Assembly: GCF_007970665.1 (NCBI RefSeq)
Contig: NZ_CP042430.1
Location: forward strand, 1,736,001 to 1,800,000
Length of the DNA: 64,000 nt
Direction of reading: 5' to 3'
From: Baekduia soli
GTDB taxonomy: Bacteria; Actinomycetota; Thermoleophilia; Solirubrobacterales; Solirubrobacteraceae
Shown here in pieces: positions 50,712 to 62,969 of this stretch (its first letter is position 1; each line of letters opens with the position of its first letter). A program made the translations under genes and the position numbers. The notes beneath the pieces are model-generated. The model was not told the origin of the DNA. It worked only from the letters and a program-made list of their open reading frames with translations, and did not search any database.

Positions 50712-51872
50712 ATGACGACGCGCGCGCAGACCGAGGCCCCGACGTTGCACGAGGCCGTGCGGCGGTTCGTCGGCGACGTCGTCGCGCCGTCGGTGCAGGC
50801 CTGGGACGCCGAGGACGAGCTGCCCGACGGCGTGCTCGCCGCGCTGGTCGACCTCGGGCTGACCGGGGCGCTCGTCCCGCCCCGCTACGGCGGGCCGGGC
50901 CTGGGCGTCGCGGACCTCGTCGGCGCCTGGCGCACGCTGTCGCAGGGGTGGATCTCGCTGACCGGCGCGGTCAACCCGACGGGCCTGGCCACCGCGCTGC
51001 TCGTCCGCCACGGCACGGAGGACCAGCGCGAGCGCTGGCTGCCCCGGATCGCGGCCGGCGAGGTGCTCGCGTCGTTCTCCATCACCGAGCCGCAGGCCGG
51101 CAGCGACCTCGGGCGCATCGAGACGACGGCGGCGCCGCGCGCCGGCGGCGGGCTCGTGCTCGACGGCCGCAAGCGCTGGGTCGCCGGCGGGCGCTCGAGC
51201 GACGTGGTGTTCCTGCTCGCCGAGGTGCAGGGAGCCGACAAGCCGTCGTGCGTCGTGCTGCCCGCCGAGGGGCGCGGCGGCGCCGGCTGGTCGATGGAGG
51301 ACATCGACAAGCTCGGCTACCGCGGGGTCGAGTCGGCCGCCTACCGCTTCACGGCGCACGAGGCGCCGGGCGCCGAGGTGCTCGGTGGCGAGGAGGGGCT
51401 CGGCGCGGGCGCGCGCCAGATGCTCGACGCGCTCGACGTGGGCCGCGTCAACGTGGCGTGCCGGGCGCTGGGGATCGTCGACCGCGCGCTGGCCTGCGCG
51501 GTGCACGAGTGCACCGACCGCGAGATCGGCGACGGCGTGCTGGGCGACCACACCCACGCCCAGCTGCGGGTGGGCGAGATCGTGGCCCGCCGCGCGGCGG
51601 CCGAGGCGCTCGTGCTGCGCGCCGCGGCGGCCTCCGACGCCCGCGACGAGACGGCGCGGGAGCTCAGCACCGCGGCGAAGATCGTGGCCTCCGACCTGGC
51701 GGTGTGGGCCGTGGACCGGGCGGCCCGCCTGGCGGCCAGCCGGTCGTTCGCGGCCTCCGACGAGCTCGCGCGGCTGCGCCGCGACGCGCCGCAGACCCAG
51801 ATCGGCGAGGGCGCCAACGACGCGCTGCTGCTCGCGCTGGCCGCCGGCGCGCTCAGCGCGCCGCGGACCTGA
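50712..51872 (+). CDS. Acyl-CoA dehydrogenase
   Basis: This 386-residue flavoenzyme has the acyl-CoA dehydrogenase order: helical N-terminus, the beta domain with FSITEPQAGSDLGRIET and LGYRGVESAAYRF, and a helical C-terminus with GRVNVACRALGIVDRAL and QIGEGANDALLL near the FAD site. It should oxidise an acyl-CoA to the enoyl-CoA. It starts at ATG 50712, 70 bases after the kinase gene, with a weak TACAGC box 6 bases upstream. Its last 20 bases overlap the convergent metallopeptidase gene. Chain-length preference is unknown. Confidence 0.85.
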   Translation: MTTRAQTEAPTLHEAVRRFVGDVVAPSVQAWDAEDELPDGVLAALVDLGLTGALVPPRYGGPGLGVADLVGAWRTLSQGWISLTGAVNPTGLATALLVRHGTEDQRERWLPRIAAGEVLASFSITEPQAGSDLGRIETTAAPRAGGGLVLDGRKRWVAGGRSSDVVFLLAEVQGADKPSCVVLPAEGRGGAGWSMEDIDKLGYRGVESAAYRFTAHEAPGAEVLGGEEGLGAGARQMLDALDVGRVNVACRALGIVDRALACAVHECTDREIGDGVLGDHTHAQLRVGEIVARRAAAEALVLRAAAASDARDETARELSTAAKIVASDLAVWAVDRAARLAASRSFAASDELARLRRDAPQTQIGEGANDALLLALAAGALSAPRT

Positions 51873-52839
51873 TCAGCTCGTCGACGACGCCGAGCTTGCG
51901 CGCCACGGCGGGGCTGAGCACGAAGGGGTACAGGTCGTCCTGGCCCATGCTGCGGTTCAGGGCGTTCAAGGCGTAGGACAACGCGAGCCAGTCCGTGAGG
52001 CGGTCCGGCAGACCGGCCGCGGGCTTGCGCGGGTCGGCGGCGAGGTCGGGGCGCTGGACCGGGCCGTCGGCGTGCAGCCCGTAGGCGGCCGCGGTCTGCA
52101 GGGTGTCGGAGATGTGCAGGACGTGGGCGAACGTCTCGGCCCAGTCCTCGGCGGCGTGCATCGTCGCGTAGGCGCTGACGTGCTCCTCCTCCCAGCCGTC
52201 CGGCGGCCCTTGCTCGTAGTGGCGGTCCAGCGCGGCGCCGTAGTCCTCGCGCTCGTCGCCGAACGTCGCGCGCGCCCGCGCCAGCGCCTCCGGCGCGGTG
52301 GTCAGCAGCGGGAAGTAGAAGTGCCCGACCTCGTGGCGGAAGTGGCCGAGCAGCGTGCGGTAGGGCTCGCCCATCTCCGTGCGCATCTGCTCGCGGTGGG
52401 CGTCGTCGGACTCGGCGAGGTCCAGCGTGATGAGCCCGTCGGCGTGCCCCGTGGTCACCGGCTCGTGGGCGCTGGAGAGCAGGTCGAACGCGAGCCCGCC
52501 CTCCTGGCGTCGGAAGGACGGGATGGGCAGGCCGATCTCGCCGAGCTCGAAGAGCAGGCGGCGCTTGGCGGCCTCGGCGTCGCGGAGCTGCTGCAGCGCG
52601 ACGGGGTCGTCGCCGGGCCGGGTGCGCGTCAGCGCGCAGCTGAAGCACAGGCCGCCGCCGTCGTCCTCGGCGAGCCAGTTGCACCCGGCCAGCGCGGCGT
52701 TGGCGCACGCCGGCGCGCCGGGCTGGGTGACGACGTCGCGCGAGGGCCAGTCGAAGCGCAGCTCGGCGCCGCAGTGCAGGCAGCGGCTGTTCTCGAAGAA
52801 GACGAGCTGCGTGCAGCGCCCGCACGTGAAGGTTCGCAT
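51853..52839 (-). CDS. Zinc-ribbon metallopeptidase (Zn_peptidase/DUF2248-like)
   Basis: This 328-residue protein has an N-terminal zinc ribbon with Cys6, Cys9, Cys20 and Cys23 and a second Cys-rich stretch (PACANAALAGCNW ... GLCFSCA). A metallopeptidase domain with the HEVGH motif (HFRHEVGHFYFPLL) and downstream EDWAETFAHVLH follows. It matches the putative zinc-binding metallopeptidase family of actinobacteria and proteobacteria, whose substrates are unknown. ATG 52839 begins exactly at the zinc ribbon and lies 8 bases after TACCCT (52853-52848). It overlaps the acyl-CoA dehydrogenase gene tail to tail. Confidence 0.8.
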   Translation of the reverse strand: MRTFTCGRCTQLVFFENSRCLHCGAELRFDWPSRDVVTQPGAPACANAALAGCNWLAEDDGGGLCFSCALTRTRPGDDPVALQQLRDAEAAKRRLLFELGEIGLPIPSFRRQEGGLAFDLLSSAHEPVTTGHADGLITLDLAESDDAHREQMRTEMGEPYRTLLGHFRHEVGHFYFPLLTTAPEALARARATFGDEREDYGAALDRHYEQGPPDGWEEEHVSAYATMHAAEDWAETFAHVLHISDTLQTAAAYGLHADGPVQRPDLAADPRKPAAGLPDRLTDWLALSYALNALNRSMGQDDLYPFVLSPAVARKLGVVDELIRSAAR

Positions 52840-53034: not shown

Positions 53035-53658
53035 CTACTCCGTCCCGAACAGTCGGTCGCCGGCGTCGCCCAGGCCCGGGCGGATGTAGCCGCGCTCGTC
53101 CAGGCCGCGATCCAGCGCGGCGGCGATGATCGGCACGTGCGGGTCCTGCTCGCGCACCGCGGCGACGCCCTCCGGGGCGGCGACCAGGCAGACGAGGCGC
53201 AGGTCGCGGGCGCCCGCCGCGCGCAGGCGCCGCAGCGCCGCCGACGACGACCCGCCGGTGGCGAGCATCGGGTCGACCACGAAGACCGTCGTGGAGGCGA
53301 GGCTCTCGGGCAGCGACTCGTAGTAGTCCTCGGGCTGCAGCGTCTCCTCGTTGCGGCGCATCCCGAGGTGCCCGACCGCCGCGTCGGGCATGAGGCGCAG
53401 GAACGCGTCGACCATCCCCAGGCCCGCCCGCAGCACCGCGATGACCGTGATGCGCTCGGGCCGCGCGCCCGTCGTGGCCTCCAGCGGCGTCTGCACCTCG
53501 ACCTCGTGGACGGGCAGGTCGCGCAGCGCCTCGTAGGCCAGCATCTCCGACGCCTCGGCCATCGCGGCGCGGAACGCGGCGCGGCTCGTATCGGTCGACC
53601 GCAGCTCGGTCAGCGCACGGGCCAGGACGGGATGCTCGATGACGCGCAGGCCTTCCAT
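53035..53658 (-). CDS. upp: Uracil phosphoribosyltransferase
   Basis: This 207-residue enzyme makes UMP from uracil and PRPP. Visible motifs are VIAVLRAGLGMVDAFL, GHLGMRRNEETLQPEDYYESLP, the PRPP loop VFVVDPMLATGGSSSAAL, and the C-terminal GYIRPGLGDAGDRLFGTE that binds uracil. Length is normal. ATG 53658 lies 10 bases after TACTGT on the minus strand. It diverges from the nucleoside-salvage operon and would recapture uracil formed there by cytidine deaminase and the phosphorylases. Confidence 0.95.
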   Translation of the reverse strand: MEGLRVIEHPVLARALTELRSTDTSRAAFRAAMAEASEMLAYEALRDLPVHEVEVQTPLEATTGARPERITVIAVLRAGLGMVDAFLRLMPDAAVGHLGMRRNEETLQPEDYYESLPESLASTTVFVVDPMLATGGSSSAALRRLRAAGARDLRLVCLVAAPEGVAAVREQDPHVPIIAAALDRGLDERGYIRPGLGDAGDRLFGTE

Positions 53659-53747
53659 CGGTGCGCGGACAGTAGTCCACGGGCCATCCGGGAACGTGGT
53701 CGGCCACCCGACCGGACCGGGCCGAATGCTCGTCACCGCACTCCTAG

Positions 53748-53763
53748 TACGTTGCGCCGGATG
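53748..53763 (+). promoter_or_regulatory. Leaderless-type -10 box (TACGTT) of the nucleoside operon
   Basis: TACGTT at 53748-53753 is 7 bases before ATG 53761. Confidence 0.5.
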
Positions 53764-54681
53764 GCTCCGCACCGCAACGTCGAGCTCAAGGCCCGCGACC
53801 CCGAGCCCGAGCGGACGCTCCGCGCGGCCCTCGCCCACGGGGCCGTCGACCAGGGCCTCCTGCACCAGCGCGACACGTACTTCGCCGCCCGCGACGGACG
53901 GCTCAAGCTGCGCGAGCAGGACGACGCCGGCCACCGCGCAGCGCAGCTCATCGCCTACGCCCGCGACGACGAGGCGACGGCCCGCACGAGCTCCTACCAC
54001 CTCGTCGACGTCCCCGATGCGGCCGCGGCGGCCGGCGCGCTGGAGGCCGCGCTCGGCCTCGTGGTCGTCGTCGACAAGCGCCGGCGCCTGCTGCTGTGGG
54101 ACGGCGTGCGCATCCACCTCGACGAGGTGCAGGGCCTGGGCTCCTGGCTCGAGCTGGAGGCCGTCGCGGCGCCGGACTCCGACCTCGCCGCCGAGCACGA
54201 CAAGGTCGGCCGCCTGCGTCAGGCGCTCGGCATCACCGACGACCGGATCGTCGCCCGCGGCTACGCGGCCATGCTCCTGGATGCCGGGGCGGCGACCCCG
54301 CGCCTGGTCGCGCTGGCCCGCCGCGCGATGGAGCGCGCGCACGCGCCGTACTCGCGGTTCCACGTCGGCGCCGCGCTGCGCGACGAGGCCGGCGGCCTGC
54401 ACAGCGGGCCCAACGTGGAGAACGGCGCCTACCCGCAGAGCCAGTGCGCCGAGGCCGCCGCGATCGGCGCGCTCGTCGCCGCCGGCGCCACCGCGATCCG
54501 GGAGGTGGCCGTCATGGCCGACACCGAGCTCATCGTCCCCTGCGGCGGCTGCCGCCAGCGCCTGGCCGAGTTCGCCGGCCCCGACGTGCCCGTGCACCTG
54601 TGCGGCCCCGAGGGGGTCCGGCGCACCGTCACGCTGGGCGAGCTGCTGCCGCTGGCCTTCGACCTGGAGGCCGCACGGTGA
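53761..54681 (+). CDS. CYTH (class IV adenylate cyclase-like)-cytidine deaminase fusion
   Basis: This single 306-residue frame joins two enzymes. Residues 1-175 are a CYTH domain: NVELKARDPEPERTL, LHQRDTYFAARDGRLKLRE, KRRRLLLWDGVRIHLDEV and LELEAV, as in actinobacterial class IV adenylate cyclase-like proteins that handle triphosphates. Residues 178-306 are a complete cytidine deaminase with NVENGAYPQSQCAE (Cys229, Glu231) and PCGGCRQRLAEF (Cys261, Cys264) as zinc and proton-shuttle residues. No stop or frame change separates them. It heads an operon with PNP, DeoA and Add, so the deaminase role (cytidine to uridine) is clear. The CYTH part could bind a nucleotide for control or process a triphosphate. 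Confidence 0.85.
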   Translation: MAPHRNVELKARDPEPERTLRAALAHGAVDQGLLHQRDTYFAARDGRLKLREQDDAGHRAAQLIAYARDDEATARTSSYHLVDVPDAAAAAGALEAALGLVVVVDKRRRLLLWDGVRIHLDEVQGLGSWLELEAVAAPDSDLAAEHDKVGRLRQALGITDDRIVARGYAAMLLDAGAATPRLVALARRAMERAHAPYSRFHVGAALRDEAGGLHSGPNVENGAYPQSQCAEAAAIGALVAAGATAIREVAVMADTELIVPCGGCRQRLAEFAGPDVPVHLCGPEGVRRTVTLGELLPLAFDLEAAR

Positions 54682-55499
54682 CCGCGGCCGCGCAGGTCGT
54701 CCGCGACGCCGCCGGCGACCGCCCGGCGCCCGTGCTCGGCCTTGTGCTGGGCTCGGGCCTCGGCGGCCTGGCCGACGCCGTCGCCGGCGCCGTGGCGATC
54801 CCCTTCGCCGAGCTGCCGGGCTTCCCGGTCGGCGCGGTGGCCGGGCACGCCGGGCGCCTCGTGCTCGGGACGCTGGCCGGCACGCCGGTGGTCGTGCTCC
54901 AGGGCCGCGCCCACCTCTACGAGGGCATCCCGGTCGCCGAGCTCGCCGTCGGCGTGCGCACGATCCGTGCGCTCGGCGCCCGCGGCGTCGTGCTCACCAA
55001 CGCCGCCGGCTCGCTGGACCCGGCGGTCGGGCCCGGCCGCGTCATGGCCATCACCGACCACATCAACCTGATGGGCGCCAACCCGCTCCTCGGGCCCAAC
55101 GACGACGCGCTGGGCCCGCGCTTCGTCGGCCTGGGCGACGCCTACGACGACGCGCTGCGTGCCCGCATGCTCGCCGCCGCCCGGGCGGAGGGCGTGGCGA
55201 TGACCCAGGGCGTCTACCTCGCCGTGGCCGGCCCGTCGTTCGAGACGCCCGCCGAGATCCGCGCCTTCCGCATCCTCGGCGCCGACGCCGTCGGCATGTC
55301 CACGGTCCCCGAAGTCATCGCCGCGCGCCACTGCGGCCTGCGCGTCACGGCGGTCTCGGTGATCACGAACCTCGCCGAGGGCCTCGGCGACGAGGCGCTC
55401 ACCCACGAGCACACGCTGGCCAACGCGCAGGTCGCCGCCCGCGACCTGCAGCGCGTCCTGCTGCGCTTCATCCCCGAGGCCGCCGCGGAGCTCGCATGA
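54678..55499 (+). CDS. Purine nucleoside phosphorylase
   Basis: This 273-residue trimeric-type PNP has VLGSGLGGLAD (phosphate site), GHAGRLVLGTLAG, LQGRAHLYEG (phosphate-binding His), NAAGSLDP, ITDHINLMGANPL, and the base-binding GPSFETPAEIRA and MSTVPEVIAARH. It splits purine nucleosides to base and ribose 1-phosphate. GTG 54678 overlaps the CYTH-CDA stop, and its own stop overlaps the deoA ATG, so the operon is tightly coupled. Confidence 0.92.
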   Translation: MTAAAQVVRDAAGDRPAPVLGLVLGSGLGGLADAVAGAVAIPFAELPGFPVGAVAGHAGRLVLGTLAGTPVVVLQGRAHLYEGIPVAELAVGVRTIRALGARGVVLTNAAGSLDPAVGPGRVMAITDHINLMGANPLLGPNDDALGPRFVGLGDAYDDALRARMLAAARAEGVAMTQGVYLAVAGPSFETPAEIRAFRILGADAVGMSTVPEVIAARHCGLRVTAVSVITNLAEGLGDEALTHEHTLANAQVAARDLQRVLLRFIPEAAAELA

Positions 55500-56800
55500 C
55501 CCCGCCCGTCAAGGAGCTGCTGCGCACCAAGCGCGACGGCGGGACGCTCGCACCCGGCGAGCTGCGCGCGCTGGCCGCCGGCATCGGCGACGGCACGCTG
55601 TCCGACGCCCAGGTCGCCGCGTTCGCGATGGCCGTGTTCTTCCGCGGCCTGGACGCGACCGAGCTGCCGGCCTTCACGCTGGGCATGCGCGACTCGGGCG
55701 CCGTCCTGGACTGGTCGGACCTCGACCGCCCCGTGCTCGACAAGCACTCCACCGGCGGTGTGGGCGACAAGGTGTCGCTCATCCTCGCACCGCTCGTCGC
55801 CGCCTGTGGCGGCGCGACGCCGATGATCTCGGGCCGCGGGCTGGGGCACACCGGGGGCACGCTGGACAAGCTGGAGGCGATCCCGGGCTACGACGCAACG
55901 CCCGACGCCGCCACGATGGGGAGGGTGGTCCGCGAGGTGGGCTGCGTCATCGGCGGCCAGACCGACGACCTGGCGCCCGCGGACCGGCGCCTGTACGCGA
56001 TCCGAGACGCCACGGGCAGCGTCGAGGCGATCCCGCTCATCGTCTCCTCCATCCTGTCCAAGAAGCTGGCCGCCGGCCTCGGCGGCCTGGTCATGGACGT
56101 CAAGCACGGCTCGGGGGCCTTCATGGCCGACCTCGGCGATGCGCGCGCGCTCGCGCGGGCGCTCGTGGACGTCGCGGTCGCGGCAGGGCTGCCGACCGTC
56201 GCGCTGCTGACCGACATGGACCGCGTCCTGGGCCACACGGCGGGCAACGCGCTCGAGGTGCGCGAGTGCGTCGACGTGTTGACGGGCGCGCCGGGCGCCG
56301 ACCCCCGCCTCGTCGAGGTCACGATGGCGCTGACCCGCACGCTGCTGGACCTCGGCGGTCTGGGCGACGCCGACCCGCAGGCCGCCCTGGACTCGGGCGC
56401 CGCCGCCGAGCGCTTCGCCTCGATGGTGACCGCCCTGGGCGGCCCGGCGGACCTGCTCGAGCGCCCCGACGCCCACCTGCCCGCCGCGCCCGTCGTGCGG
56501 GAGGTCTTCGCGACCGCCCCGGGGTTCGTCACCGGGCACGCCGTGCGCGACCTCGGCCTGCTCGTCACCGAGCTGGGCGGCGGCCGGCGCACGGAGGCCG
56601 ACGCCATCGACCACGCCGTCGGCCTGTCGGCCGTCGCCGGGCCCGGCGCCCAGGTGGGCCCGGGCTCCCGCCCGCTGGCCGTCGTGCACGCCCGCGACGA
56701 GGACGCCGCCGACGCCGCCGAGCGCGCCCTGCGCACGCTGATCGCCGTGGGCGACGCGGCGCCCCCGACCCCGCCCGTCGTCACGGAGGAGCTGCGATGA
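55496..56800 (+). CDS. deoA: Thymidine/pyrimidine-nucleoside phosphorylase
   Basis: This 434-residue enzyme of the thymidine phosphorylase/AnPRT fold has VLDKHSTGGVGDKVSLILAP (phosphate and substrate loop), MISGRGLGHTGGTLDKLEAIPG, DVTGSVE-type IRDATGSVEAIPLI, SSILSKKLAAGL and VMDVKHGSGAFM. It converts thymidine, deoxyuridine or uridine plus phosphate to base and (deoxy)ribose 1-phosphate. Both ends overlap the neighbours by 4 bases. Confidence 0.93.
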   Translation: MTPPVKELLRTKRDGGTLAPGELRALAAGIGDGTLSDAQVAAFAMAVFFRGLDATELPAFTLGMRDSGAVLDWSDLDRPVLDKHSTGGVGDKVSLILAPLVAACGGATPMISGRGLGHTGGTLDKLEAIPGYDATPDAATMGRVVREVGCVIGGQTDDLAPADRRLYAIRDATGSVEAIPLIVSSILSKKLAAGLGGLVMDVKHGSGAFMADLGDARALARALVDVAVAAGLPTVALLTDMDRVLGHTAGNALEVRECVDVLTGAPGADPRLVEVTMALTRTLLDLGGLGDADPQAALDSGAAAERFASMVTALGGPADLLERPDAHLPAAPVVREVFATAPGFVTGHAVRDLGLLVTELGGGRRTEADAIDHAVGLSAVAGPGAQVGPGSRPLAVVHARDEDAADAAERALRTLIAVGDAAPPTPPVVTEELR

Positions 56801-57795
56801 CGGACCACGCCGCCGAGGTCGACGCCCTCCCCAAGGCCGAGCTGCACGTCCACCTCGAGGGCACCGCGACGCCCGAGCTCGTGCGCCGCCTGGCGCGCCG
56901 CAACGGCGTCGCGCTGCCCGACGGCCTCTTCGCCGACGAGCACACCTTCGCGTGGACCGACTTCCTGGACTTCCTGCGCGCCTACGACGTCGCCGCCTCG
57001 ACCATCCGCACGGCCCTGGACTACCGCGACGTGACCTACGAGTACCTCACGGCCTGCGCCGCCGAGGGCGCGGTCTACGTCGAGCTCATCGCCTCCCTGG
57101 ACCACGGCGCGCTCGTCGGCCTCGGCGACGCCGAGCACATCGCCGGCATCGCTCAGGGCATCGACGACGCGCACGCCGACCACGGCATCGTCGGGCGCAT
57201 CATCTCCTCGTGCGTGCGCAACTTCGGCGTCCCCGCCGCCGAGGACGTGGCGCGCCGCACCGTCGCCCTGGACCACCCCTACGTCGTCGGCTTCAACATG
57301 GCCGGCGACGAGGCCGGCTTCCCGGCGCCGGACTTCGCCCGCGCGTTCGCCATCGTCGCCGAGGCGGGGCTGGGGTGCTCCGTGCACGCCGGCGAGCACG
57401 CCGGGCCCGAGTCCGTGCGCGCCGCGCTCGCGCTGCCCGGCGTCCGGCGCATCTCGCACGGCGTGCGGGCGATCGAGGACCCCGCGCTCGTGGAGGAGCT
57501 CGCCCGGCGCGCCATCGTGCTCGAGGTCTGCCCCACCTCCAACGTCGTGCTCGGCGTCTACTCGTCCTACGAGGCCCATCCGCTGCCGGCCCTGCGCGCC
57601 GCCGGCGTGCTCGTCACGCTGGGCTCCGACGATCCTCCGTACTTCGGCACGACGATCGGCCGCGAGTACCGGCTCGCCCACGAGCGCCTGGGCTGCGATC
57701 TGGCGGCGTTGGCGGCGATCACCCGAACCGCGCTGGATGCGGGCTTCGCCCGTCACCTCGCCGTGAACCTCACTGACCATCTCGGGGATCGGTAG
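56797..57795 (+). CDS. add: Adenosine deaminase
   Basis: This 332-residue zinc enzyme has HVHLEGTATPEL (metal histidines), FNMAGDEAGFP, CSVHAGEHAGPES (metal His, catalytic Glu), ISHGVRAIED and LGSDDPPYFGTT (metal Asp). It deaminates adenosine to inosine, which the operon's PNP can split. GGAGG lies 6 bases before ATG 56797, which overlaps the deoA stop. A hairpin follows 7 bases after its own stop. Confidence 0.92.
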   Translation: MTDHAAEVDALPKAELHVHLEGTATPELVRRLARRNGVALPDGLFADEHTFAWTDFLDFLRAYDVAASTIRTALDYRDVTYEYLTACAAEGAVYVELIASLDHGALVGLGDAEHIAGIAQGIDDAHADHGIVGRIISSCVRNFGVPAAEDVARRTVALDHPYVVGFNMAGDEAGFPAPDFARAFAIVAEAGLGCSVHAGEHAGPESVRAALALPGVRRISHGVRAIEDPALVEELARRAIVLEVCPTSNVVLGVYSSYEAHPLPALRAAGVLVTLGSDDPPYFGTTIGREYRLAHERLGCDLAALAAITRTALDAGFARHLAVNLTDHLGDR

Positions 57796-57868: not shown

Positions 57869-58942
57869 GTGCGTGCACGTTCCACCCGCCGGACCCTTGC
57901 TGCGATCGGCCTCTCCGGGCTGCTCATCGCCGCGGCCGGCTGCGGCTCCAGCAGCAACGCCAACTCGTCGTCGTCGTCCTCCTCCGGGGCCACGACGACC
58001 GCCGCCGCTGCGGCGCCGGCCAAGAAGGCCATCAAGGTCGGTCTGGTGACGGACATCGGCGGTCTCAACGACCGCTCGTTCAACAGCCTGGCCAACCAGG
58101 GCCTCGAGCAGTCCAAGTCGCAGCTGGGCATCACCGGCCGCGTCCTGACCTCGAAGTCCAACGCCGATTACATCCCGAACCTCTCCACGCTGGCCCAGCA
58201 GAAGTACGACCTGGTCATCGGCGTCGGCTTCCTCATGGCCGACGCGGTCGACACGGTCGCCAAGAAGTTCCCCAACACGAAGTTCGCGATCATCGACGTC
58301 GACGCCACCGGCCTGAAGGGCAAGCCCACCAACGTCGAGGGCCTGCTCTTCAAGGAGCAGGAGTCCGGGTACCTGGCGGGCTACCTCGCCGGCCTGTACG
58401 CCAAGGGCAACAACGTGACGACGATCTCGAGCGTCGGCGGCCAGAAGATCCCGCCGGTCGACCACTACATCGCGGGCTACGAGGCCGGCGCCAAGGCGGC
58501 CGACCCGTCGATCAAGACGCTGCACGCCTACTCACAGGACTTCGTCGACCAGGCGAAGTGCAAGGAGATCGCGCTCAACCAGATCGCGCAGGGCTCCAAG
58601 GTCGTCTTCCAGGTCGCGGGCCAGTGCGGCCTCGGCGCGCTGGACGCCGCCAAGGGCAAGAACCTGCAGGGCATCGGGGTCGACGCCGACCAGGCCTACC
58701 TGGGCAGCTACATCCTGACCAGCGCCATCAAGAAGGTCGACCAGTCGGTGATCGACACGGTCAAGCAGGTCCAGGACGACAAGTACACCGGCGGCGCGAA
58801 CACCACGTTCTCGGTCGCCAATCAGGGGGCCGGGATCGGCAAGATCGGCGCGGCCGGGACCAAGTACCAGGCCCAGGTCGACGCGGTGGCCAAGAAGATC
58901 GCCGCCGGGTCGATCACGATCCCGGACACCGTCGCCAAGTAG
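57869..58942 (+). CDS. BMP-family nucleoside-binding lipoprotein of an ABC transporter
   Basis: This 357-residue lipoprotein has a signal peptide with lipobox IAAAGC (lipidated Cys25) and a Ser/Ala-rich linker. It ends in a BMP/PnrA-type purine-nucleoside-binding domain with [51 protein letters not shown] and DADQAYLG. It captures nucleosides outside the membrane for the ABC importer encoded next. GTG 57869 follows GAGGGAG. It is the first gene of the import operon. Confidence 0.92.
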
Positions 58943-58950
58943 CAGCACGC

Positions 58951-60504
58951 GTGGCGCACGAGTCGCCAGCGGGTGCCGGTGCCGCGGAGCTCGCCCTGGA
59001 GCTCCGCGGCATCACCAAGCGGTTCGGCGCCGTCGTGGCCAACGACGGCGTCGACCTGCAGCTGCGCCGCGGCGAGATCCACGCCCTGCTCGGCGAGAAC
59101 GGCGCGGGCAAGTCGACGCTCATGAGCGTCGTCTACGGCATGGCCCGCCCCGACGAGGGCGAGATCCGCATCGACGGCGAGGTCGCCGTCGTGTCCTCGC
59201 CCAAGGACGCCATGGCCCGCGGCGTCGGCATGGTGTTCCAGCACTTCATGCTCATCCCGGTCATGACGGTCGCCGAGAACCTCGTGCTCGGCGCCGAGCC
59301 GCGGCGCGGCGGGCTGTTGGACCTCGCCGCCGCGCGGCGGCGCACGCGCGAGCTGTCGCAGCGCTACGGCCTGCGCGTCGACCCGGACGCCCGCGTGTCG
59401 GACATCTCGGTCGGCCAGCAGCAGCGCGTCGAGATCCTGCGCGCCCTGGACCGCGGCGCGCGGATCCTCGTCCTCGACGAGCCCACCGCCGTGCTCACCG
59501 CCCAGGAGACGGCCGAGCTCGTCGAGGTCCTGCGCGGCCTGCGCGCCGGGGGCACGTCCATCGTCTTCATCACCCACAAGCTCCACGAGGTCCTCGAGGT
59601 CGCCGACCGCGTCACCGTCCTGCGGCGCGGCAAGACGATCGGGACGATCGACACGGCGGGCGCCGACGAGGCGTCGCTGGCGCGGATGATGGTCGGCCGC
59701 GACGTCGTGCTCCGCGTGGAGAAGGAGGCCCGCACGCCCGGCGCGCCGCTCCTGGAGATCGACGACCTGCACGTGACCGACGACCGCGGGCTGCCCGCCG
59801 TCGACGGCGTGTCGCTGCAGGTGCGCGCCGGCGAGATCGTCGCGGTCGCGGGCATCGACGGCAACGGGCAGTCCGAGATCATCGACGCCGTGTGCGGGCT
59901 GCGGCCCGTGGCCTCCGGCCACGTCCGGATCGGCGGCCGCGACATCACCGGGTGCGACCCGCGCGAGGCGCGCGAGGCCGGCATCGGCCACATCGCCGAG
60001 GACCGTCATCGCCGCGGCCTGGTGCTCGACTTCACGCTGGCCGAGAACCTCGCGCTGCGCGACTACCGCTCCGGCGCGCGGTTCGGGCTGCTCAGGCCGC
60101 GCCGGATGCTCGACACGGCGCGGCGGCTGCTGGCCGAGTTCGACGTGCGCGGCGGCGAGCCGGAGACGCCCGCGCGCTCCCTGTCGGGCGGCAATCAGCA
60201 GAAGGTCGTCATCGCCCGCGAGATCTCCGGGGAGCCCGACGCCCTCATCGCGGCCCAGCCCACACGCGGGCTCGACGTCGGCGCGATCGAGTTCGTCCAC
60301 CGCCGGCTGCTGGCCGAGCGCGACGACGGCAAGGCGATCCTGTTGTTCTCGCTCGAGCTCGACGAGGTCCGCGCGCTGGCCGACCGCATCCTGGTGATCT
60401 ACGGCGGCCGCATCGTCGGTGAGCTGCCGCCGACCGCCGGCGACGAGGAGCTCGGCCTGCTCATGACCGGCGGGTCGCGCGTTGCCGCGGAGGGCGCGGC
60501 GTGA
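58951..60504 (+). CDS. Nucleoside ABC importer, double ATP-binding protein
   Basis: This 517-residue protein contains two ABC domains, as in BmpB/NupA and RbsA. The first has Walker A GENGAGKST, Q-loop VFQHFMLIP, signature SVGQQQRVEI and Walker B ILVLDEPTA. The second has a degenerate Walker A (GIDGNGQSE), signature LSGGNQQKVV and a changed Walker B (LIAAQPTRGLD), typical of the class. It energises nucleoside import. GTG 58951 starts 8 bases after the lipoprotein stop; its end overlaps the permease start. Confidence 0.92.
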   Translation: MAHESPAGAGAAELALELRGITKRFGAVVANDGVDLQLRRGEIHALLGENGAGKSTLMSVVYGMARPDEGEIRIDGEVAVVSSPKDAMARGVGMVFQHFMLIPVMTVAENLVLGAEPRRGGLLDLAAARRRTRELSQRYGLRVDPDARVSDISVGQQQRVEILRALDRGARILVLDEPTAVLTAQETAELVEVLRGLRAGGTSIVFITHKLHEVLEVADRVTVLRRGKTIGTIDTAGADEASLARMMVGRDVVLRVEKEARTPGAPLLEIDDLHVTDDRGLPAVDGVSLQVRAGEIVAVAGIDGNGQSEIIDAVCGLRPVASGHVRIGGRDITGCDPREAREAGIGHIAEDRHRRGLVLDFTLAENLALRDYRSGARFGLLRPRRMLDTARRLLAEFDVRGGEPETPARSLSGGNQQKVVIAREISGEPDALIAAQPTRGLDVGAIEFVHRRLLAERDDGKAILLFSLELDEVRALADRILVIYGGRIVGELPPTAGDEELGLLMTGGSRVAAEGAA

Positions 60505-61734
60505 GCGTCACCCCCCGCCCGAGCCCGGCGCCCAGCCCGAGCTCGACCTCGGCTCCGGGCCCACCGTCGCCTCGCGCCTGTCGGCCCAGCTGCGCGGAGG
60601 CGGGATCCTCGCCCCGGTCCTGACGGTGATCATCGCGTTCCTGGCCGGCGGCCTGGTCGTGCTGGCCACGGGCCACAACCCGATCGACACCTACAAGGCG
60701 ATCTTCAACGGCACGGGCCTGCAGTGGCTGTTCCCGTGGACCTCGGGCGCCGACCGCGACACGGCGGCGATCAACCTCCAGCAGACGCTGCTGATCACCG
60801 CGCCGCTGATCCTCGTCGGCCTGGCCGTCGCCTACGCCTTCCGCGCCGGCCTGTTCAACATCGGCGGCCAGGGCCAGTACGCCGTCGGCGGCATCGTCGC
60901 GGTCTGGGTCGGCTCCTCGTGGTCCGGGATGCCGGGCTGGCTGCACATCATCCTCGCGATGGTGCTGGCCACGCTGGCGGGGGCCGCGTGGGCCGGGATC
61001 GCCGGCGCCCTGCGCGCCACGACCGGCGCCAACGAGGTGATCACCACGATCATGCTCAACTACGTCGCGCTGTGGCTCGGGGTGTACCTCTTCCAGCTCG
61101 GTGGCCCGCTGCAGAACAGCACGCAGCCCGACGTCCCGATCTCCAACGACATCGTCGGCAGCGCCCACCTCCCGGTCTTCTGGGGCGACCCAGAGCTGCA
61201 GGGGCTGCACATCGGGATCTTCGTGGCGCTCGCCGCGGCCGTCGTCTACTGGGTGCTGCTCAACCGCTCGACGAAGGGCTACGAGGCGCGGGCGGTGGGC
61301 TTCAACCCCGAGGCCGCGCGCTACGGCGGCATCCGCGTCGGCTGGACCTACGTGCTCGTCATGGGCACCTGCGGCGCGCTGGCCGGCCTGGCGGGCTCGC
61401 TCGACGTCCTGGGCTGGCAGTTCCACCTGGCCACGAACGACATCCAGACGTCGCAGATCGGCTTCCTGGGCATCGCGGTGGCACTGCTGGGACGCAACAC
61501 GGCGATCGGCACGTGCCTGTCGGCGCTGCTGTTCGGCGCGCTGGTCAACGGCACGTCGGTGCGCAACCTGGACCCGGCGGTCTTCGAGCCCGAGCTGGCC
61601 CAGAACCTGACGACGGTCATCCAGGGCCTGGTCGTGCTCTTCGTCTCGGCCGACCTGCTCGTCGTCATCGTCTACAACCGGCTGCGCCGGCGGCGCACCG
61701 GTCCGGCCGCCGAGGCCGAGGGGCTGCCGCATGA
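60501..61734 (+). CDS. Nucleoside ABC importer permease 1, frame disturbed at both ends
   Basis: This permease of about 410 residues belongs to the BmpC/RbsC family. It has about ten helices and the motifs FRAGLFNIGGQGQYAVGG, GANEVITTIMLNY and GFNPEAARYGGI. GTG 60501 overlaps the ATPase stop, but its frame joins the permease frame only if one C is added to the C6 run at 60511-60516. At the 3' end the frame lacks a stop and reads through the next gene unless one base is added near 61690-61730, which would give a TGA at 61732-61734 overlapping the next ATG. I read both as one-base assembly losses. A TTG at 60482 is the alternative start without correction. Confidence 0.8.
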
Positions 61735-62969
61735 GCGGGCTGTCGACGGTCGCCGACCGCCTGCGCTCGCCGCGCGACGAGGGGCCCGGGGGCTCCGCGG
61801 CGCCGCCCGAGCGCTGGTACGGCCACGCGGGCATCGCGCTCGGGCTGATCGCGTTCGTCCTGACGCTGCCGCCGTTCGAGGTGCGCACCGCGCTGCCCTC
61901 GCTGATCATCGGGATCGTGGCCGCCGGGCTCGGCGTCGTCGCGATCCGCGGCGGGGCGCGCCGGCCGGGCTGGGGCGCGATCGCCGCCGCGATCGCCGGC
62001 GTCGCCGGCGCCTACGGGGCGTCGCGCTCGGGGACCTCGCACCTCGAGGTCGTCGTGAGCTGGGGCGCCCTGACCGCGGCGATGCTGCGCTACGCCACGC
62101 CGCTGACGTTCGCCGCGCTCGGCGGCCTGGTCAGCGAGCGCTCCGGGGTCGTGAACATCGCCCTGGAGGGCATGATGCTCATGGGCGCCTTCTTCGCCGC
62201 GTGGGGCGCCGACCGCACCGACTCGTGGGTGCTCGGCCTGCTCATCGGCGTGCTGGCGGGCATGGCGCTGGCCGCCGTGCACGCCGTGTGGGCGATCACG
62301 CTGCGCTCGGACCAGATCGTCTCGGGCACCGCGCTGAACTTCGTGGCCCTGGGCGTGACGGGCTACATGTACGTCAACTCCTACGGCCAGGACGGCACGC
62401 CCGACAACCTGCCCGCCGTGCCCGAGATCCACCTGCCCACCGACTCGCTGGGCTTCATCGGCGACGCGATCAGCGACCTCAACCTGCTCGTGTGGGGCGC
62501 CCTGGTCGCCGTCGTGGTGATCTGGGTCGTCGTGTTCCGCACTGCCCTGGGCCTGCGCCTGCGGTCGGTGGGGGAGAACCCGCGGGCGGCGGAGACCGTC
62601 GGCGTCAAGGTGCTCTCCACGCGCTACGCCGCGGTCATCACGTCCGGCGGCCTGGCCGCGCTGGGCGGCGCGTTCCTGTCGATCGGCTTCGTGCACTCCT
62701 TCACGCAGAACATGACCGCGGGCCGCGGCTTCATCGCGCTGGCGGCGCTGATCTTCGGCCGCTGGCGGCCGGGCGGGCTGCTCGCCGCGACGCTGCTCTT
62801 CGGGTTCTCCAGCGCCCTGGCACAGCGGCTGCCCGAGTTCTCACCCCAGCTGGCGACGCTCTTCCAGGCGCTGCCCTACGTGTTGACGCTCATCGCGGTC
62901 GCCGGCGTGGTCGGCCGCTCGACGCCGCCGGCCGCCGACGGCGTGCCGTACAAGCGCGAGAGCGCGTAG
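61731..62969 (+). CDS. Nucleoside ABC importer permease 2
   Basis: This 412-residue permease, partner of the preceding one, has SERSGVVNIALEGMMLMGAF (the EAA-like conserved loop), LRSDQIVSGTALNFVALG and GENPRAAETVGVKV, with about ten helices. Together with permease 1 it should form the membrane channel of the BMP-type nucleoside importer. ATG 61731 overlaps the expected stop of permease 1. A hairpin follows its stop. Confidence 0.9.
   Translation: MSGLSTVADRLRSPRDEGPGGSAAPPERWYGHAGIALGLIAFVLTLPPFEVRTALPSLIIGIVAAGLGVVAIRGGARRPGWGAIAAAIAGVAGAYGASRSGTSHLEVVVSWGALTAAMLRYATPLTFAALGGLVSERSGVVNIALEGMMLMGAFFAAWGADRTDSWVLGLLIGVLAGMALAAVHAVWAITLRSDQIVSGTALNFVALGVTGYMYVNSYGQDGTPDNLPAVPEIHLPTDSLGFIGDAISDLNLLVWGALVAVVVIWVVVFRTALGLRLRSVGENPRAAETVGVKVLSTRYAAVITSGGLAALGGAFLSIGFVHSFTQNMTAGRGFIALAALIFGRWRPGGLLAATLLFGFSSALAQRLPEFSPQLATLFQALPYVLTLIAVAGVVGRSTPPAADGVPYKRESA

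What the first reader, a model, noticed from the sequence alone, without database searches (positions are those of the whole stretch)
53761..54681. CYTH domain fused to cytidine deaminase at the head of a nucleoside-salvage operon
One uninterrupted frame encodes a CYTH (class IV adenylate cyclase/triphosphatase-like) domain followed by a complete cytidine deaminase (Cys229-Ala-Glu231, Cys261, Cys264). The CYTH family binds organic or inorganic triphosphates with metal. Fusion to a salvage deaminase, upstream of PNP, DeoA and Add and beside a nucleoside importer, suggests either allosteric gating of salvage by a (d)NTP or signal nucleotide, or a nucleotide-processing step coupled to deamination. 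I do not know of this fusion being described.
Basis: partly seen in the sequence, partly recalled or inferred. Interest (0 to 1): 0.7.

Follow-up and report, generated by a model that had tools for sequence, protein, structure and literature searches.

The report
Triphosphate-tunnel domain fused to cytidine deaminase
In soil bacteria of the order Solirubrobacterales, the enzyme that deaminates cytidine is built as one protein with a domain that binds triphosphate compounds, a conserved pairing that I found described nowhere and that suggests a two-function nucleotide-salvage enzyme.

Summary
Window 53761-54681 (+) is one open frame of 306 aa with a complete CYTH (triphosphate-tunnel) domain (residues 5-168) and a complete tetramer-type cytidine deaminase (182-303), heading a PNP-DeoA-Add-BMP/ABC operon opposite upp. 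It is no lost stop. The same uninterrupted fusion, 55-76% identical and nearly always in the same operon slot, occurs in 27 of 232 genomes of the order, and in none of 395 other Actinomycetota sampled.

All catalytic residues of the deaminase and the tunnel residues are invariant in 25 distinct fused proteins. Published motif rules make the CYTH domain a triphosphatase-type TTM, not a class IV cyclase or a ThTPase. But the first Glu of the ExExK hallmark is Asn in the whole subfamily, so catalysis is uncertain.

Both domains also occur alone: five relatives keep the deaminase alone in the same slot with no CYTH gene at all, and 27 keep the CYTH alone without this deaminase. No genome holds both as separate genes, apart from three with only a divergent deaminase hit. 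I therefore favour a bifunctional enzyme of two separable activities over obligatory allosteric gating, which remains open. It is a new domain combination of known parts.

The parts
53761..54681 (+). Fused CYTH-cytidine deaminase gene (306 aa)
   Evidence: full-length uninterrupted orthologues
53773..54264 (+). CYTH / triphosphate tunnel (TTM) domain, residues 5-168; tunnel residues N6 E8 K10 R47 K49 R51 R68 K106 R108 R117 H119 D121 E131 E133 invariant in 25 distinct fused proteins
   Evidence: PF01928 E 1e-13; alignment; fold match to PH1012 2dc4 Z 21.0 and SaTTM 7ns9 Z 18.9
54265..54303 (+). Short interdomain linker, residues 169-181 (roughly 5-10 residues between the last CYTH helix and the first CDA helix across the family)
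   Evidence: alignment; model secondary structure
54304..54669 (+). Cytidine deaminase domain (homotetrameric type), residues 182-303; zinc/catalytic C229-A-E231 (54445-54453), C261 (54541), C264 (54550), substrate N218/E220
   Evidence: TIGR01354 above its cut-off; PDB sequence matches; fold match to mouse CDA 2fr5 Z 21.1
53035..53658 (-). upp, uracil phosphoribosyltransferase, divergent neighbour conserved beside the fusion
   Evidence: context
54678..55499 (+). purine-nucleoside phosphorylase (start overlaps the fusion's stop codon)
55496..56800 (+). thymidine/pyrimidine-nucleoside phosphorylase (deoA/pdp)
56797..57795 (+). adenosine deaminase (add)
57869..58942 (+). Bmp/PnrA-type ABC substrate-binding lipoprotein (nucleoside-type importer by family)
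   Evidence: PF02608 E 3e-56
58951..60504 (+). ABC importer ATPase
61731..62969 (+). ABC importer permease (BPD_transp_2)

Best explanation
The gene encodes a bifunctional salvage protein. Its C-terminal half is an active, tetramer-type cytidine/deoxycytidine deaminase that feeds uridine/deoxyuridine to the phosphorylase and Upp encoded beside it. Its N-terminal half is a TTM-type CYTH domain whose tunnel binds a metal-triphosphate (PPPi, NTP/dNTP or a related compound) and probably hydrolyses or otherwise processes it. The CDA tetramer would therefore carry four tunnels. The two activities are separable and are joined for co-expression and co-localisation at the head of the nucleoside operon, rather than one being strictly required by the other. 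Shown here: the fusion, intact catalytic and tunnel residues, purifying selection on both halves, operon linkage, a complete predicted fold for each half, and existence of each half alone. Inferred: that the tunnel turns over a substrate, which substrate, that the CDA half is active and tetrameric, and that the benefit is co-localisation.
For: CDA catalytic set and substrate residues 25/25 invariant; above-cut-off CDA call; near-full-length PDB matches. Tunnel residues 25/25 invariant. No HF motif, ExE E131/E133 intact, basic K49 and R51: TTM-type by PMC8233210. dN/dS below 0.45 for both halves in 8 pairs. AlphaFold2 model mean pLDDT 90, both domains complete. In 146 family genomes: 26 fused; 5 with CDA alone in the same slot and no CYTH gene; 27 with this CYTH alone and no above-cut-off CDA; none with this CYTH and an above-cut-off CDA as two genes. 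Unfused CDAs nest among fused ones in the tree, so the CDA is kept when the CYTH half is gone. Stand-alone CYTH L010 nests among fused ones, so the CYTH half is kept without the CDA.
Against: First Glu of the ExExK hallmark is Asn6 in the fused proteins and in over 90% of the stand-alone set. In AtTTM3, changing the equivalent Glu-2 to Asp or Ala strongly cuts PPPi hydrolysis (PMC4641920), so the domain may bind rather than hydrolyse. The family-typical tunnel Lys (SaTTM K69) is not conserved (position 67 varies; R68 is invariant instead). The metal-site region also carries R117 and H119, which the archaeal structures aligned here lack. Strict single-gene state whenever both are present could equally mean a regulatory need. 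Some relatives also carry a second, canonical EIERK CYTH protein, so a plain PPPase role would be redundant there.
Confidence: 0.55

Rival explanations
1. Allosteric gating: the CYTH tunnel is a metal-triphosphate (NTP/dNTP/PPPi) sensor with little catalysis, and its ligand switches the deaminase on or off, so that salvage follows the nucleotide pool.
For: Asn replaces the metal-2 Glu while the metal-1 Glu (E131) and the basic tunnel residues are invariant, as expected of a binder; linker is short; the family never keeps this CYTH and an above-cut-off CDA as separate genes; SaTTM changes between open and closed tunnel on binding (PMC8233210).
Against: Five relatives run the same operon with the same CDA lacking any CYTH, and 27 keep the CYTH without this CDA, so neither needs the other. 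No structural or biochemical evidence of coupling. E8, K10, D121 and E133 would not all be needed for simple binding.
Confidence: 0.22
2. Passive fusion: the CYTH domain only adds stability, oligomer contacts or translation coupling at the operon head; its tunnel no longer matters for salvage.
For: CYTH half evolves somewhat faster than CDA in most pairs; gained or lost more than once.
Against: All tunnel residues invariant in 25 divergent proteins down to 54% identity and dN/dS below 0.45; a passive tag would lose them.
Confidence: 0.13
3. Class IV adenylyl (or other nucleotidyl) cyclase fused to a deaminase: a cyclic-nucleotide signal linked to salvage.
For: Weak TIGR00318 cyaB match below its cut-off (29 against 57.95 bits); fold match to Yersinia AC-IV 2fjt Z 18.5.
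Against: No HF motif before the ExExK position, second Glu of ExE retained (Ala in all AC-IV), basic K49 where AC-IV has a small residue; best fold matches are archaeal proteins of the TTM cluster.
Confidence: 0.04
4. Artefact: a lost stop codon or frameshift joining two genes in one assembly.
For: None.
Against: 27 independent genomes carry the uninterrupted fusion; named isolate genomes do too.
Confidence: 0.01

Closest known systems
Homotetrameric cytidine deaminase (TIGR01354; e.g. Bacillus subtilis CDA 1jtk, mouse CDA 2fr5)
   Same: Residues 182-303: sequence, zinc motif, substrate residues and fold
   Different: Carries an N-terminal CYTH domain; the matched solved structures are single-domain
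TTM-type CYTH proteins: archaeal SaTTM Saci_0718 (7ns8/7ns9), PH1012 2dc4, PH1819 2een, Pfu 1yem
   Same: Residues 5-175: eight-stranded tunnel fold, E8/K10, R51, K106/R108, D121, ExE
   Different: Asn for the first Glu of ExExK, no tunnel Lys at 67, subfamily-specific R68, R117 and H119; fused to a deaminase
YgiF-type CYTH-CHAD and plant TTM1/2 kinase-CYTH proteins
   Same: CYTH as one module of a multidomain protein (PMC8233210)
   Different: Partner is CHAD or a kinase domain; a deaminase partner is not in the list given there (HD, exopolyphosphatase, nucleotidyl kinase, CHAD, phosphoribulokinase)
CyaB class IV adenylyl cyclase (2fjt, 3n0y)
   Same: Fold, several tunnel residues
   Different: Lacks the HF motif; has ExE instead of ExA and a basic residue at the xRxR position

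Membership tests
Cytidine deaminase, tetramer type (TIGR01354) | Whole-domain profile match above the curated cut-off | tested here: met
   123.1 bits against cut-off 113.65
Cytidine deaminase, tetramer type (TIGR01354) | CxE ... PCxxC zinc/catalytic motif and N-x-E substrate residues | tested here: met
   C229, E231, C261, C264, N218, E220 invariant 25/25
Cytidine deaminase, tetramer type (TIGR01354) | Deaminates cytidine/deoxycytidine; homotetramer | not testable with these tools
   no biochemistry; single-chain fold match only
CYTH superfamily (PF01928) | Profile match above gathering score; eight-stranded tunnel fold | tested here: met
   51.7 bits against 23.2; Z 14-21 to solved CYTH proteins
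CYTH superfamily (PF01928) | Hallmark N-terminal ExExK motif | tested here: not met
   NxExK: Asn6 25/25 in the fused set and in over 90% of the stand-alone set; E8 and K10 met
TTM triphosphatase-type CYTH | No HF motif; ExE on the last strand; basic residues at xRxR | tested here: met
   no HF; E131/E133; R47xK49xR51 (first Arg is Lys)
TTM triphosphatase-type CYTH | Hydrolyses PPPi or NTP gamma-phosphate with Mg/Mn | not testable with these tools
   needs assay; Asn6 raises doubt (PMC4641920)
Class IV adenylyl cyclase | HFxxxxExExK motif and ExA | tested here: not met
Thiamine triphosphatase | W/YxRxR motif | tested here: not met
   R47 at the aromatic position in 25/25

The most novel reading that the evidence does not exclude
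The NxExK tunnel is a triphosphate sensor that evolved from a TTM enzyme by changing its metal-2 site, and in the fusion it gates cytidine deamination and so the nucleoside-catabolic operon's flux by the cellular (d)NTP or PPPi level: a previously unknown allosteric cytidine deaminase.
Probability: 0.2. Interest if true: 0.65.

Novelty: new variant of a known kind. Interest (0 to 1): 0.4.

Why it matters
The physiological substrate and role of most bacterial CYTH/TTM proteins are unknown. A conserved physical link to a deaminase, with natural controls of each half alone in close relatives, makes the role of one TTM subfamily directly testable and ties it to nucleoside salvage. It also marks an uncharacterised NxExK subfamily that genome annotation may mislabel as class IV adenylate cyclase.

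Tried and rejected
Lost-stop artefact: rejected by 27 independent uninterrupted fusions. Class IV cyclase: motif test fails. A CYTH remnant upstream of the unfused CDA in L130: the tblastn extension to residue 114 crosses a stop and is not convincing; the unfused genes start cleanly with their own start codon. A CDA remnant downstream of stand-alone CYTH L010: none detected. Coupling to dGTPase, which releases PPPi and deoxynucleosides: TIGR01353 occurs in 18 of 19 relatives whether or not they have the fusion, so it is not informative. Conserved neighbours of stand-alone CYTH: none seen in the seven loci inspected. Sigma-70 promoter or terminator in 53600-54800: none found. Literature searches for the fusion: nothing relevant. 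The CYTH founding paper (10.1186/1471-2164-3-33) is not held.

Full report
WHAT IS THERE. Window 53761-54681 (+) is a single open frame of 306 aa. Pfam finds CYTH at residues 5-168 (E 1.2e-13) and NCBIfam calls residues 182-303 a tetramer-type cytidine deaminase above its curated cut-off. The deaminase half matches solved CDAs (EfCDA E 9.5e-25, B. subtilis E 1.1e-23) and the CYTH half matches archaeal TTM-type proteins. The gene heads an operon: PNP, pyrimidine/thymidine phosphorylase, adenosine deaminase, Bmp-type binding protein, ABC ATPase and permease, with upp divergent on the other side. The gene's stop overlaps the start of PNP.

IT IS A REAL, CONSERVED FUSION. Searching 232 genomes of the order gave 27 full-length matches without an internal stop: 26 of 146 in the window's own family and one in a sister family. 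Named isolates include Paraconexibacter antarcticus, Solirubrobacter soli and S. deserti. The fusion sits between upp and PNP in nearly all; one relative, L115, has Add directly downstream instead. An even sample of 396 genomes of the phylum shows the fusion only in the window's own genome; all other listed matches cover one domain only. This makes it a trait of Solirubrobacterales within the collections searched.

FUSED OR ALONE. In 146 family genomes, 31 have an above-cut-off CDA and 53 have this CYTH subfamily. Of the 31, 26 have both, always fused; the other 5 lack any CYTH gene. The remaining 27 have the CYTH alone without such a CDA; three of these (G157, G073, G158) have only a divergent CDA-like hit below the cut-off. 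The association is strong (Fisher p 1e-9), but shared ancestry inflates this figure. In the CDA tree, fused proteins plus the five unfused ones form one clade (89/87) with the unfused ones nested inside: the simplest reading is one fusion followed by loss of the CYTH half. In the CYTH tree the fused domains fall into at least three groups and one clade is rejected (p-AU 0.005); the stand-alone L010 lies within the fused group of the window. So either the CYTH half escaped several times or joined more than once. This is not settled.

WHAT THE CYTH HALF IS. Vogt et al. 2021 (PMC8233210) give motif rules: AC-IV needs HFxxxxExExK and ExA; ThTPase has W/YxRxR; TTMs have ExE and basic xRxR. The window protein and all 25 distinct fused proteins have no HF, keep E131/E133 and carry R47xK49xR51. 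So it is TTM-type, not a cyclase. Equivalents of SaTTM E7, R58, K110, R112, E135 and E137 are invariant; R56 is Lys. Two tunnel positions differ: the first Glu of ExExK (SaTTM E5, a metal-2 ligand) is Asn6, and K69 is replaced by a variable residue followed by invariant R68. R117 and H119 are also invariant here and absent at these positions in the aligned archaeal proteins. Stand-alone relatives share these features, so the change predates the fusion or came with the subfamily. Some relatives have a second CYTH protein with a canonical EIERK motif. In AtTTM3, mutating the equivalent Glu strongly lowers PPPi hydrolysis (PMC4641920), so hydrolysis cannot be assumed.

STRUCTURE AND SELECTION. 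AlphaFold2 on the 25-protein alignment gave mean pLDDT 90.1 with both domains complete. VIA-align gives Z 21.1 to mouse CDA, 21.0 to PH1012, 18.9 to SaTTM and 18.5 to Yersinia AC-IV. Inter-domain geometry was not assessed. dN/dS in eight pairs is 0.08-0.44 (CYTH) and 0.10-0.32 (CDA). High G+C codon bias lowers dS, so these are upper-side estimates.

MECHANISM. Most likely a bifunctional enzyme: deaminase plus a TTM-type triphosphate-processing tunnel, linked for co-expression and co-localisation. Because each half lives without the other in close relatives, an obligatory allosteric switch is less likely. A sensor role is the leading rival because of Asn6.

NOVELTY. I found no description of a CYTH-CDA protein. 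The full-text library holds only openly licensed papers, and the CYTH founding paper was not held. Known CYTH partners listed in PMC8233210 do not include a deaminase. Both parts are known kinds; the combination and the NxExK tunnel make it a new variant.

Noticed in passing
L133:49-229 (G013): Decayed cytidine deaminase upstream of an intact PNP in a relative: frameshifted and with the catalytic Cys replaced by Arg (QRAE).
   Followed up: partly
window 60500-61734: The first ABC permease frame (60500 onwards) has no stop near the start of the second permease at 61731; the TGA that would overlap it lies in another frame, so a frameshift or assembly error near 61.7 kb is possible.
   Followed up: no
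window 54304-54669: The deaminase half is closer to alphaproteobacterial CDAs (Inquilinus, Henriciella, SAR11; about 55-60%) than to those of other Thermoleophilia (about 40-50%), which suggests horizontal transfer in one direction or the other.
   Followed up: partly
L198, L199, L200, L201, L202, L204: A second, separate CYTH protein with a canonical EIERK motif occurs in several genomes, most of which also carry the fused NxExK protein.
   Followed up: partly
L029 (record titled Mycobacterium sp. KBS0706): Its CDA groups with Inquilinus limosus (Alphaproteobacteria) in the tree, so the record title may be a misnomer.
   Followed up: no
window 51853-52839 (-): Zinc-ribbon plus Peptidase_Mx (putative zinc-binding metallopeptidase) gene next to upp.
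   Followed up: no
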